Source: a bacterium
GTDB taxonomy: Bacteria > 4484-113 > JALSIF01
DNA: 20,115 nt
Assembly: GCA_026981635.1 (NCBI GenBank)
Contig: JALSIF010000137.1
Coordinates: forward strand, 1 to 20,115
Reading direction: 5' to 3'
In this document: piece after piece, positions 3,554 through 15,744 of the stretch
Numbering within the stretch: position 1 is the stretch's first letter
Layout of the letters: each line of letters starts with the position of its first letter
Notes under the pieces: model-generated
The model's input: the letters and a program-made list of their open reading frames with translations, nothing else
What the model was told of the DNA's origin: nothing
The model's database searches: none
Program-made: the position numbers and the translations under genes

Positions 3554-4921
3554 CTAGAAGTCAAAGCGGAGGCCCAGGGTGAGGTGATTATCCTGGAAGG
3601 CGTCCTCCACCCCGAAGACCAGCCGGTAGCCCGGGCCGATGGGGTAGGTGAGGTAGGCGTTGGTCTTCACATCGTTGGGGTCATAGACATCAAGGTCCAG
3701 CGCCGCCTCCCCCAGGAGCAGCCTTGTGCCCAGGGCCCACTTCCCCCGGTGGATGCCTCCCCGAAGCTGGACCGGACCCTGCCAGGTGCCCGCTTCCAGG
3801 GTGAGCTTGCCCCCCTCTCCCAGGTTGTCCACCCCGGTGAGGAAGGCGCTGTCACCCATGCGAAGCTCCAGCCTGAGGTCGCCGCGAAACTCGTCCTCCC
3901 TCTTCGGGTCGCGGGTGAGCAGAGCGCGCTGGGTGATGCTCTTGGAGAACTGGATGTTGTCCTCCTCCCCCTCTCCCTCGGTGCCCAAAAGGTCGTTTAT
4001 CCCCGCCACCGCCCGGTCAACCCGGGTGAGGGTCTCGTTTAGGTGGACTACCGTCTTCTTGGCCTCCTCCACCGTCTCCTTGGTGAGCCTGGCCGCCGCC
4101 ACCAGACTGGACTTCACCTCCGGGTCGCCGGTGATGTCAGAGATGTCAGAGAGGATCTCGTTTAGCTCCCTTGAGCTTTGGTCCAGGTTCTTGGCCAGCT
4201 GGTTGAGGGAGGAAAGCAGCTCCTCATTGGTCAGCGCCTGGCGGATCTGTCTGGCCAGAATGGCAAAGTTTTCCGCCGCCGCCTGCATGTTGGCGGTGGT
4301 GGCGCTGATCTCGTCGGCATTCTCCACCACCACGCTGTTTAGGGAGGTGATCAGCCGGTTGATGTTGTCAAGGGTCTCGCCCACCTGCTGGTTAAGCTCC
4401 TTAAGGGACCTGCCCAGGGGGTCCTCCTCTAGGTAGCGGTTGAGGTTGTCAACCAGCTGACTTGCGTTGGCCAGCAGCTCCACCCCCCGGGTCATCATTT
4501 CGTTAAAGTCGGGCCCCTTGTGACCGGTCTCAAAGGTGTGGCCCGGAGCTACCTCCTCCCCTGGCTTGGGCGGACCTGTGGGGAAGTCAACCGCCACGTA
4601 GCTCTCCCCCAGGTAGCCGGAGGAGAGGATGGTGAAGGTGGCATCCTCGGGCAGCCTGAAGCTCTTTGCCAGTTCCAGCTTCAGTCTGGCCCTCCCCTGA
4701 TCATCAAGGCTGATAGATGCCACATAGCCCACCTGCATTCCCGCCTTCTTGACCAGGCTCTGCTCCTGGATTCCCTCCACGCTGTCAAACACAACATAGA
4801 CCGGATAGGTGGGTTCGGCCATGCTCACCCTGACCAGGGAGAAGGCCAGCCAGCCCAGGATCACCGCCGCCACCAGGACCACGCCAACCTTGACCTGAAG
4901 GCTAAGTTCGCTCGTGTCCAT
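3554..4921 (-). CDS. mlaD: MCE-family substrate-binding protein MlaD with C-terminal beta-barrel-like domain
   Basis: 455 residues, much longer than the roughly 180 of E. coli MlaD. Residues 11-33 form an N-terminal membrane helix and about 38-115 the MCE domain ('VYVVFDSVEGIQ', 'GYLGESYVAVDF'). About 138-312 is a long, mostly helical region rich in Asn/Leu/Glu heptad-like stretches, expected to form the periplasmic coiled tube of the hexamer. About 343-455 is a run of alternating amphipathic strands ('DLRLELRMG', 'KLTLEAGTW', 'WALGTRLLLG', 'YRLVFGVED') closing with 'LTLGLRFDF*'. A terminal Phe after a strand is the classical BAM recognition signal of outer-membrane barrels. I infer an inner-to-outer membrane bridge, as described for MlaD of Veillonella parvula. 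ATG 4921 follows two AGGAGG-type ribosome sites 15 nt after the mlaF stop. Confidence 0.93.
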   Translation of the reverse strand: MDTSELSLQVKVGVVLVAAVILGWLAFSLVRVSMAEPTYPVYVVFDSVEGIQEQSLVKKAGMQVGYVASISLDDQGRARLKLELAKSFRLPEDATFTILSSGYLGESYVAVDFPTGPPKPGEEVAPGHTFETGHKGPDFNEMMTRGVELLANASQLVDNLNRYLEEDPLGRSLKELNQQVGETLDNINRLITSLNSVVVENADEISATTANMQAAAENFAILARQIRQALTNEELLSSLNQLAKNLDQSSRELNEILSDISDITGDPEVKSSLVAAARLTKETVEEAKKTVVHLNETLTRVDRAVAGINDLLGTEGEGEEDNIQFSKSITQRALLTRDPKREDEFRGDLRLELRMGDSAFLTGVDNLGEGGKLTLEAGTWQGPVQLRGGIHRGKWALGTRLLLGEAALDLDVYDPNDVKTNAYLTYPIGPGYRLVFGVEDAFQDNHLTLGLRFDF

Positions 4922-7925: not shown

Positions 7926-8405
7926 CTAGGAGCCGAGGAGCTTTATCTTCTCCGTGTGATAGATGGGCCTTCCATGGGGCCAGAGGGTGAGCACCCTCAC
8001 ATCCCCCCTGACTTTGGTCTGGCAGGCAAGCCTGATCACCGCCTTGAGCTCCCCCCAGGTCACATAGCCCACCCCCACCGCATGGCCGTGGTCGGGGTGG
8101 TAGGGGGCCGGGTAGTCGGTGGAGAGGTTGAGGCCGAAGAGGATGTGCAGGGGATCAAGCCCGTGCAGCAGGGAGTGCCACTTCTCCACAAAGGTGGGCG
8201 GGGTGACGTTGGCCGCACTGGTCAGCGCCACCAGGCAGGTTCCGCAGAGGCCGTGCCCCCGGCAGTTGAGGATATTGAAGGGGGGTTTGTAGAGGTTTAC
8301 CCCGCAGGCCAGCGCCGCGGTGCGCAGGTCCACCCCCTCTTCCACATCCACGTGGACCTTCTCGTGGTGGAAGTAGACCCGACAGACCTTTCCCCGCCTA
8401 GCCAC
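7926..8405 (-). CDS. [2Fe-2S] ferredoxin with a His-rich insertion inside the cluster domain
   Basis: About 159 residues from GTG 8405. I prefer this start because GGAGG lies 8 nt upstream; GTG 8414 would add three residues. Cluster cysteines: C48-x5-C54-x2-C57 ('NCRGHGLCGTC') and C128 in 'RLACQTKVRGDVRVLT', the canonical C-terminal ferredoxin motif. The gap between the third and fourth cysteines is 70 residues, about twice the usual. The insertion (about 60-123) carries six His (77, 81, 87, 103, 106, 108), including 'YHPDHGHAVG'. No membrane segment, so likely soluble. It overlaps the end of the membrane-bound ferredoxin gene by 8 bases and is translated with it. Electron partner unknown. 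The C-terminal tail 'WPHGRPIYHTEKIKLL' was not recognised. Confidence 0.85.
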   Translation of the reverse strand: MARRGKVCRVYFHHEKVHVDVEEGVDLRTAALACGVNLYKPPFNILNCRGHGLCGTCLVALTSAANVTPPTFVEKWHSLLHGLDPLHILFGLNLSTDYPAPYHPDHGHAVGVGYVTWGELKAVIRLACQTKVRGDVRVLTLWPHGRPIYHTEKIKLLGS

Positions 8406-9207
8406 CTTGGCCACCTCCGCTGGTCGTTGTTCTAGGCGTCTCGCTTCTCAGGCTCTCGGGGGCAAACTGGCGCTCGTATTCGGCTACCGGTAGCATCACG
8501 CTCTCCGGCACCAGGGTGCGCACGATCACATCCTCCTGTCCCACCAGGGTCTGACAGGCAAGCACCCGCCTGCCCAGGCTTCGCCGGCGTCGCTCCTGCT
8601 CCTCCCGCCTGGCCTTTATCCTGGCCTGATATTCCAGATACTGCTTGGGCCAGAAGAGGCGGGCGATGGGGCCGCCCGGCCCGGCCAGCAGACCGAACAG
8701 GATCCAGCCCACCCAGGAGCCATAGAAGACGGCCAGGCTGATCAGCGTCCACCAGGTGGTCTGCCAGGCCACCTGCCGGTCAACATTGGAGAGCTTGAAG
8801 ATGCTCACAAAGAGATCGTCCAGGACGGGCTTGCCGTTGGCAAAGACCACAAACCAGGTGTAGGCAATGGTAAAAAGCCCAATCAGCAGGGGAAGTCCCA
8901 CCAGCCAGAGGGGGAGGTTGAAGCCGGGCAGCTTCTCCCGAAACTGCAGGTTGTGCAGGCGCATGTGCAGCCGGTCAAGGTCCACCGCAATAGGGCCAAG
9001 CTTTATGGGCGGCCGCTTGCGGGAGACCGAGTGGGGGTTTATCACCTCAACCTGGCACGAGCCGCAGAGCCCCTTGCCGCCGCAGTTTAGGACGTTGAAG
9101 GGGCGCGGATAGATGTTTATCCCCTCCTGGATGGCCACGCTGCGCAGGTCCTGGCCCGGCTCGGCCGAACAGCGCCTTTTCTCCCGCTCAAAGTAGACCC
9201 AGGGCAT
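8398..9207 (-). CDS. Membrane-anchored [2Fe-2S] ferredoxin split by a two-helix transmembrane insertion
   Basis: 269 residues. The N-terminal half of a plant/adrenodoxin-type ferredoxin (about 1-56) has C42-x5-C48-x2-C51 ('NCGGKGLCGSC'). The fourth ligand C218 lies in 'RVLACQTLVGQEDVIVRTL', the normal ferredoxin C-terminal motif, but 166 residues later. Between them are two hydrophobic helices (about 97-122 and 148-176) and a strongly basic stretch (about 183-214, 'KARREEQERRRRSLGRR'). Basic residues after helix 2 and an even helix number put both ferredoxin halves in the cytoplasm, where they could fold together. A Ser/Thr/Gly-rich tail ends the protein. A short 'DLDRLHMRLHNL' stretch loosely recalls the insertion of the neighbouring soluble ferredoxin, so the two may be paralogues. 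Divergent from an MFS transporter. Confidence 0.85.
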   Translation of the reverse strand: MPWVYFEREKRRCSAEPGQDLRSVAIQEGINIYPRPFNVLNCGGKGLCGSCQVEVINPHSVSRKRPPIKLGPIAVDLDRLHMRLHNLQFREKLPGFNLPLWLVGLPLLIGLFTIAYTWFVVFANGKPVLDDLFVSIFKLSNVDRQVAWQTTWWTLISLAVFYGSWVGWILFGLLAGPGGPIARLFWPKQYLEYQARIKARREEQERRRRSLGRRVLACQTLVGQEDVIVRTLVPESVMLPVAEYERQFAPESLRSETPRTTTSGGGQGG

Positions 9208-14874: not shown

Positions 14875-15744
14875 ATGTTGAACTTCCTTTTTAGGCGAAG
14901 GGAGGAGCCGGCCTACGAAGTCTCCCTCTCGCCCACCCGCATCCCCGCCGACGGTCGTTCCAGCGCCGAGGTGGTGGTTAGGCCCAGGCCGGGCCATCAA
15001 CCGCCCCAGCAGCTTACCTTCACCCTCTCCCAGGGAAGCTTTTCCCCCGACGAGGTGGTGCGAGAAAGAACCATCACCGCCGACCCCGAAGGGGTCTTCC
15101 GCTTCCGGGTCTACGCCCCACGCCGCCCCGCCGTAATTACCATCGCCGCCGGCGGCAGGCCCATCGCCGAGCTAACCGCCCGCGCCAGCCTCATCCAGTC
15201 CCTGATCTATGAGTGGGTGCCCATGATCGCCATCGCCATCGTGCTGGCATTTATCCTGCGCACCTATGCGGTGGCCGCCTATTACATCCCCAGCGGCTCC
15301 ATGGAGCCCACCCTGCAGGTGCGTGACCGGCTCATTGCGGTCAAGTTCCCCTACGTGGTGCTGAAGGAGAAGCCCAGGTTTGGTGACATCGTAATCTTCA
15401 AGCCCGACTGGTCGCGCAAGGACTTCATCAAGCGGGTAATCGGCCTACCCGGCGACACCATTCAGGTGGTAAAGGGGGTGGGGGTGTTTAGGAATGGCAA
15501 GCTTTTGGAGGAACCCTACGTTAAGGCACCCCCCAACTACAACTGGGGGCCCGAGGTGGTGCCGGAGGGCAAATACTTCGTCCTGGGCGACAACCGGATA
15601 AACAGCTGGGACAGCCACTACTGGGGCTTTCTGGAACAGGACGACATTGAGGGCAAGGCGGTGCTGGTCTTCTGGCCTCCCCGCCGCTTCAGCCTGCTTA
15701 CCCGCAGCCGTCCCCGGGAAGTGGAAGGCGAGCCCGCCCCCTAG
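14875..15744 (+). CDS. lepB: Signal peptidase I with an N-terminal Ig-like (Big_1-type) domain
   Basis: 289 residues. The S26 domain is complete: membrane helix at about 113-134, catalytic Ser142 in 'SGSMEPTL', Lys186 in '[12 protein letters not shown]', and '[14 protein letters not shown]' at 238-251. It cleaves signal peptides on the outer face of the inner membrane. Ahead of the helix is an extra domain (about 14-100) resembling the invasin-type bacterial Ig fold: '[20 protein letters not shown]' opens it and '[15 protein letters not shown]' lies in the middle. No hydrophobic segment precedes it, so by the normal LepB topology it would face the cytoplasm, odd for an Ig domain. ATG 14875 is preceded by AGGGGG; TTG 14878 is an alternative. 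Cotranscribed with rplS. Confidence 0.95.

What the first reader, a model, noticed from the sequence alone, without database searches (positions are those of the whole stretch)
8398..9207. Ferredoxin domain split by a two-helix membrane anchor
The three N-terminal cluster cysteines and the C-terminal 'LACQT' cysteine of a [2Fe-2S] ferredoxin are separated by 166 residues holding two membrane helices and a basic arm. An even number of helices puts both halves on the same side, so one cluster fold could close over the membrane surface. Fusions of ferredoxins to membrane domains at an end are familiar; insertion inside the cluster domain is a layout I do not recognise.
Basis: partly seen in the sequence, partly recalled or inferred. 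Interest (0 to 1): 0.68.

Follow-up and report, generated by a model that had tools for sequence, protein, structure and literature searches.

The report
Ferredoxin split by membrane hairpin
A small iron-sulfur electron-carrier protein in an uncultured bacterium has a two-helix membrane anchor built into the middle of its metal-binding domain, and structure models suggest that the two halves still close into one working domain; this layout was found in none of the roughly thousand other genomes searched.

Summary
ORF 8398-9207(-) encodes 269 aa with CX5CX2C (C42, C48, C51), two hydrophobic helices flanked by basic arms, and LACQT (C218) 166 residues after C51. It belongs to a widespread family of small adrenodoxin-type [2Fe-2S] ferredoxins, whose closest solved relatives by profile are the plastid NDH subunit PNSB3. 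The family occurs in Cyanobacteria, Planctomycetota, Nitrospinota, KSB1 and others, and the fourth Cys is invariant in all 37 aligned members. Relatives have 30-50 residues between C3 and C4. An adjacent, overlapping 162-aa paralog has 71 and no membrane helix. The window protein has 167. Two AlphaFold models, one built from 37 sequences and one from only the two window paralogs, superpose residues 1-56 plus about 213-234 on complete ferredoxins (best Z 12.0 and 9.9). No relative with the same insertion was found in about 1,060 genomes or in a motif scan of about 85,000 species genomes. Best reading: a membrane-tethered ferredoxin whose anchor was grown inside a loop that is already a hotspot for insertions. 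Partner and reaction are unknown. New variant of a known kind.

The parts
8398..9207 (-). Ferredoxin with inserted membrane hairpin, 269 aa
   Evidence: ORF; Fer2 E 0.0045, 17.3 bits, below the Pfam cut-off of 21; family alignment; structure models
9040..9207 (-). N-terminal ferredoxin part, residues 1-56, with CX5CX2C (C42, C48, C51)
   Evidence: Alignment; HMM 77 bits against at most 4.3 for shuffles; pLDDT 92-97 for residues 1-30, 66-71 for residues 31-50
8572..9039 (-). Inserted segment, residues 57-212, in the connector between C3 and C4
   Evidence: Alignment; relatives have 30-50 residues from C3 to C4
8842..8916 (-). Membrane helix 1, about residues 98-122 (model 100-123)
   Evidence: Hydropathy peak 2.05, no charged residues; helix in model
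8683..8757 (-). Membrane helix 2, about residues 151-175 (model 141-175)
   Evidence: Hydropathy peak 1.79, no charged residues; helix in model
8575..8646 (-). Basic helical arm, about residues 188-211
   Evidence: Helix 188-211 in model; residues 176-215 have K+R 12, D+E 4
8500..8571 (-). C-terminal ferredoxin part, residues 213-236, RRVLACQT with C218 and the last strand (227-231)
   Evidence: Alignment; shuffle test; pLDDT 81 (211-220) and 96 (221-230)
7926..8414 (-). Paralogous ferredoxin, 162 aa (159 aa if the GTG at 8405 is the start), C3-C4 spacing 71, no membrane helix; its start overlaps the end of the first gene
   Evidence: (42% identity over residues 4-82)

Best explanation
This is an adrenodoxin-type [2Fe-2S] ferredoxin whose electron-carrier head is pinned to the cytoplasmic face of the inner membrane by a helical hairpin inserted in the connector between the third and fourth cluster ligands. 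Residues 1-56 and about 213-236 close into one domain and bind one [2Fe-2S] cluster through C42, C48, C51 and C218. The two helices cross the membrane and return, and a basic amphipathic arm (about 176-212) leads the chain back to the head. It most likely shuttles electrons between a soluble donor and a membrane-bound acceptor. The soluble donor may be the co-transcribed paralog. Shown by sequence: all four ligands, the hairpin, basic flanks, the tandem overlapping paralog. Shown by model only: closure of the fold. Inferred: cluster binding, topology, electron transfer, partner.
For: All ligands are conserved in the family. Closure appears in two models, one of them built without any compact relative. 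There are two charge-free hydrophobic helices with basic flanks on both ferredoxin-side arms and a balanced 28-residue loop between them. The connector is variable in relatives: 30-34 in most, 39-50 in planctomycetes and others with hydrophobic or amphipathic segments (e.g. L145 KFTTLVNPIWFFARIG), and 71 in the paralog. Other members gained a membrane anchor another way, as a C-terminal helix in Ignavibacteria (L076) and KSB1 (L077, L085), so membrane tethering recurs in this family. The two genes overlap by 8 or 17 bases and lie on one strand. The genome has membrane electron acceptors: two complex I-type clusters, a cytochrome b/Rieske pair and a cbb3-type oxidase.
Against: No relative shares the insertion, so selection on the hairpin cannot be shown. 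The C-terminal signal is short. The cluster loop (31-50) is modelled at pLDDT 66-71 and the hairpin loop at about 52-61, pTM 0.55. No cofactor, topology or activity data exist. The flanking genes (folC, an MFS transporter) do not name a partner.
Confidence: 0.62

Rival explanations
1. The protein is a structural or assembly subunit of a membrane respiratory complex (for example the complex I-type complexes of this genome), and the ferredoxin head is a docking module instead of a shuttling carrier, as with plant C1-FDX or plastid PNSB3.
For: The best profile hits among solved structures are PNSB3 chains in NDH complexes (E 6e-23). C1-FDX bridges the arms of plant complex I and is needed for its assembly (PMC11446459). 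The genome holds two complex I-type clusters. NuoF (PF01512) was not found in this genome but is present in all nine held classmates.
Against: All four cluster ligands are kept, unlike C1-FDX, which lacks one (PMC11446459). The genes do not lie near nuo genes. The missing NuoF and NuoG N-terminus may be an assembly gap: the genome is 85% complete and contig C96 starts inside a molybdopterin-binding C-terminus next to nuoH. The compact relatives stand alone in varied contexts.
Confidence: 0.2
2. The halves do not close within one chain: two molecules swap, with C218 of one completing the cluster of the other, giving an obligate membrane dimer.
For: In Azotobacter FeSII a crystal domain swap was described for the internal N-loop (residues 59-96) and its lid helix (PMC11301756), which by my alignment is the same connector. 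The long helical arm (188-211) could reach a neighbour.
Against: Single-chain models place both halves in one fold. In FeSII the swap was attributed to crystallization.
Confidence: 0.1
3. The C-terminal LACQT is coincidental. The N-terminal half is a relic or a three-Cys metal site fused to a small membrane protein.
For: The C-terminal match is short, 9.0 bits for the tail, and Pfam Fer2 matches only residues 40-57.
Against: It exceeds all 5,000 shuffles. The adjacent paralog has the same LACQT-V--DV-V-TL-P pattern in a clear ferredoxin context. Both models place the last strand at pLDDT 91-96.
Confidence: 0.05
4. Assembly artefact: two genes joined, or foreign DNA inserted, in a metagenome contig.
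For: Only one genome carries it, and this genome is a fragmented assembly (317 contigs).
Against: One uninterrupted frame with gene-like GC3 in every segment. The inserted segment shares residues with the paralog loop, such as V..PP, H..LH and L.G.NL.
Confidence: 0.03

Closest known systems
PNSB3, plastid NDH subcomplex B ferredoxin-like subunit (PDB 7eu3/7f9o, 7wff/7wg5, 9grx)
   Same: Closest solved relative by sequence and profile. Same CX5CX2C ... LACQ pattern and same fold in the model (Z 10.7).
   Different: Compact C3-C4 connector (about 33 residues by the printed alignment), no membrane helices, held in NDH by other subunits.
Compact bacterial members of the same family (Cyanobacteria, Planctomycetota, Nitrospinota, Nitrospirota, Binatota and others)
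   Same: Same fold, same ligands, 30-41% identity to the window protein over aligned residues. Some planctomycete members carry a short hydrophobic insert at the same place.
   Different: Mostly 98-130 aa, connector 30-50 residues, no membrane hairpin.
Azotobacter FeSII (Shethna protein II)
   Same: Adrenodoxin-type [2Fe-2S] ferredoxin with an elaborated internal loop (residues 59-96, PMC11301756) that by my alignment lies between ligands 3 and 4.
   Different: The loop is soluble and is linked to binding nitrogenase. No membrane helices.
NqrF of Na+-NQR
   Same: A membrane-tethered [2Fe-2S] ferredoxin domain (matched).
   Different: From established knowledge, its helix is at the N-terminal end of the protein, not inside the ferredoxin domain, and it is fused to an FAD/NADH module.
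C1-FDX, ferredoxin subunit of plant complex I
   Same: Ferredoxin fold bound to a respiratory membrane complex (7aqq_O, Z 8.8).
   Different: Lacks one conserved Cys (PMC11446459). No internal hairpin known to me.

Membership tests
[2Fe-2S] adrenodoxin-type ferredoxin (PNSB3-like family) | Four cluster cysteines in the order CX5CX2C ... C within (L/M)(A/G/S)CQ | tested here: met
   C42, C48, C51, C218; alignment of 37 members
[2Fe-2S] adrenodoxin-type ferredoxin (PNSB3-like family) | Beta-grasp ferredoxin fold | tested here: met
   Model superposes on full-length ferredoxins, Z up to 12.0; two-sequence model Z 9.9. Model, not experiment.
[2Fe-2S] adrenodoxin-type ferredoxin (PNSB3-like family) | Typical connector of about 30-50 residues between third and fourth ligand (a usual trait, not a strict definition) | tested here: not met
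   167 residues. The paralog has 71. Length is variable in the family, so this marks a variant and does not exclude membership.
[2Fe-2S] adrenodoxin-type ferredoxin (PNSB3-like family) | Binds a [2Fe-2S] cluster | not testable with these tools
   Needs EPR or UV-visible spectra
Pfam Fer2 (PF00111) | Score above the gathering cut-off of 21 bits | tested here: not met
   17.3 bits, residues 40-57 only. The insertion breaks the match; relatives L076 and L145 pass at 31.3 and 25.4.
PNSB3 (NDH subunit) | Part of an NDH / complex I-type complex | not testable with these tools
   The genome has two complex I-type clusters, but no linkage to this locus was seen.
C1-FDX (structural complex I ferredoxin) | Loss of one of the four cluster Cys | tested here: not met
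   All four Cys present; the loss in C1-FDX is stated in PMC11446459

The most novel reading that the evidence does not exclude
A ferredoxin fold interrupted by a transmembrane hairpin, so that the [2Fe-2S] cluster sits at the membrane surface with both of its connector strands coming from the bilayer. The hairpin could do more than anchor: it could dock the cluster permanently onto a quinone-reducing complex (for example a complex I-type enzyme fed without NuoF), making a built-in ferredoxin entry point.
Probability: 0.2. Interest if true: 0.75.

Novelty: new variant of a known kind. Interest (0 to 1): 0.52.

Why it matters
Membrane attachment of soluble electron carriers is usually drawn as a tail at one end. 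If this domain really closes around an inserted hairpin, the ferredoxin fold tolerates a membrane domain between two of its own cluster ligands. That would bear on how such proteins fold (the cluster cannot form until both helices are inserted and the chain has returned) and on how soluble carriers evolve into subunits of membrane complexes. The range of connector lengths in relatives (30-50, then 71 in the paralog, then 167) gives a possible path for such a change.

Tried and rejected
Searched for the same architecture in about 1,060 whole genomes (relatives, cyanobacterial phylum, the G289 phylum, the G014 phylum) and twice in genome contigs. All ferredoxin matches end by about residue 85 in the genome searches. 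In one search the longest spans (L109, L068) turned out to be compact members with connectors of about 40-46. Weak matches to the membrane segment alone (G335, G361, G464; E 0.0015-0.009, two with stops inside) were taken as composition. A bis-His heme in the hairpin was considered and rejected: neither membrane helix has a His (sequence). Neighbourhoods of 20 relatives gave no recurrent partner. A tree of the core columns did not place the two window proteins in any supported clade, with long branches meeting. Literature searches for a ferredoxin domain with an internal membrane hairpin found none in the held library, which does not hold most subscription papers. PHROGs gave no match.

Full report
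Observation. The ORF at 8398-9207 on the minus strand encodes 269 residues. Its cysteines are C13, C42, C48, C51 and C218. C42, C48 and C51 form CX5CX2C, and C218 sits in LACQT, 166 residues after C51. Two charge-free hydrophobic stretches lie between them, about 98-122 and 151-175. Flanks are basic on both ferredoxin sides (K+R/D+E 8/3 and 12/4), and the 28-residue loop between the helices is balanced (3/3), which fits both halves facing the cytoplasm. GC3 is gene-like in every segment.

Is it more than chance? A profile of the N-terminal part made from relatives without the window proteins scores the window protein at 77 bits, against at most 4.3 for 5,000 shuffled tails. The C-terminal profile scores the tail at 9.0 bits, against at most 7.3 for 5,000 shuffles; the paralog tail scores 25.3. 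Removing the insertion by hand raises the best PDB matches slightly and brings LACQT into the alignment with PNSB3 (compare).

Family. The protein falls just below the Pfam Fer2 cut-off (17.3 of 21 bits), but two relatives tested pass (L076, L145). Relatives were found in cyanobacteria, Planctomycetota including Kuenenia, Nitrospinota, Nitrospirota, Binatota, KSB1, Ignavibacteria, Chloroflexia and others. They are mostly 98-130 residues. The profile of the family finds PNSB3 of the plastid NDH complex first (E 6e-23), then putidaredoxin-type ferredoxins, NqrF and FeSII. In 37 aligned members C42, C48 and C218 are invariant and C51 is lost only in two KSB1 members.

The insertion point. The spacing from the third to the fourth Cys is 30-34 in most relatives and 39-50 in planctomycetes and a few others, where the extra residues are often hydrophobic or amphipathic. 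Directly downstream, overlapping by 8 or 17 bases depending on the start used, lies a 162-residue paralog with a spacing of 71 and no membrane helix. The first part of the two insertions shares residues. The window protein has 167. So the hairpin lies in a connector that the family already elaborates. Azotobacter FeSII offers a precedent: an internal loop (residues 59-96) with a lid helix, linked to nitrogenase binding and described as domain-swapped in crystals (PMC11301756). That this loop is the same connector is my inference from the alignment. Two other groups in the family carry a membrane helix at the C-terminus instead (L076; L077 and L085).

Does it close? AlphaFold2 with 37 sequences gave mean pLDDT 76.6 and pTM 0.55: 92-97 for residues 1-30, 66-71 for 31-50, 81 for 211-220 and 96 for 221-230. 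Helices span 100-123 and 141-175, a long helix spans 188-211, and strands 213-216 and 227-231 complete the fold. VIA-align puts residues 1-232 or so on whole ferredoxins: FdC 9i2a_B Z 12.0 with 90 of 94 residues, E. coli Fdx 1i7h Z 11.4, PNSB3 9grx_3 Z 10.7. Plain Foldseek on the same model gave only weak E-values (best 0.02, the same PNSB3 chain), as expected for a small domain interrupted by a long insert. Because compact relatives in that alignment could force closure, I repeated it with only the two window paralogs. Confidence fell (62.6), but residues 1-30 kept 86-92 and 221-230 kept 91, and the best match was again FdC at Z 9.9 with 87 of 94 residues. The paralog still carries some information on closure, so this second test is less biased but not independent. 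Cys distances were not measured because coordinates are not released.

Distribution. None of nine held classmates has a match. None of about 1,060 genomes shows the insertion. The genome-contig scan with [LM]NC[GRH]GxG[LMQ]CG, which the window protein itself fits, found 327 relatives, none of the best 80 with the hairpin. The search is limited by that motif. The layout is therefore so far a singleton, and purifying selection on the hairpin cannot be tested.

Function. The most economical reading is a membrane-tethered ferredoxin passing electrons between a soluble partner, perhaps its overlapping paralog, and a membrane acceptor. The genome has two complex I-type clusters, a cytochrome b/Rieske pair and a cbb3-type oxidase. 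NuoF was not found in this genome but is present in all nine classmates. This would fit a ferredoxin-fed complex I, but the N-terminal part of NuoG is also missing while a molybdopterin-binding C-terminus opens contig C96 beside nuoH, so a single assembly gap could explain both. I treat it as a lead only. Neighbouring genes (folC, an MFS transporter) are uninformative. Neither membrane helix holds a His, so a bis-His heme is excluded.

Verdict. It is a new variant of a known kind: a real ferredoxin by sequence, ligands and predicted fold, with a layout for which I found no precedent in the sequences or held literature searched. Interest is moderate to good. The limits are a single example, no conserved partner and no experiment.

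Noticed in passing
L077:6001-6414 and L085:6001-6414 (KSB1): Two relatives have Asp in place of the third cluster Cys (CGSD) and a C-terminal membrane helix, keeping the fourth Cys: a possible Asp-ligated or cluster-free variant.
   Followed up: partly
L076:3636-4073 (Ignavibacteriales): Relative with all four Cys and a C-terminal membrane helix: a separate route to membrane anchoring in the same family.
   Followed up: partly
window 7926-8414 (-): The paralog's 71-residue connector is rich in His (WHSLLHGLDPLH, YHPDHGH), perhaps metal-binding.
   Followed up: no
L059:5947-6684 (Nitrospinaceae): Two compact members in tandem, as in the window, in an unrelated group.
   Followed up: no
L138:12204-13268 (-), own genome contig C214: A 354-aa protein with a hydrophobic N-terminal part and a weak 4Fe-4S match sits between nuoH and nuoJ, where nuoI is expected.
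   Followed up: partly
own genome (G000): PF01512 (NuoF) and PF10588 (NuoG N-terminal) not found, while all nine classmates have NuoF; may be an assembly gap.
   Followed up: partly
window 14875-15744 (+): Signal peptidase I-like protein with an extra domain of about 100 residues before its first membrane helix (read from the sequence, not tested).
   Followed up: no
window 3554-4921 (-): MCE-type protein beside MlaE/MlaF-like genes with a long C-terminal part that reads like an outer-membrane strand-rich region (read from the sequence, not tested).
   Followed up: no
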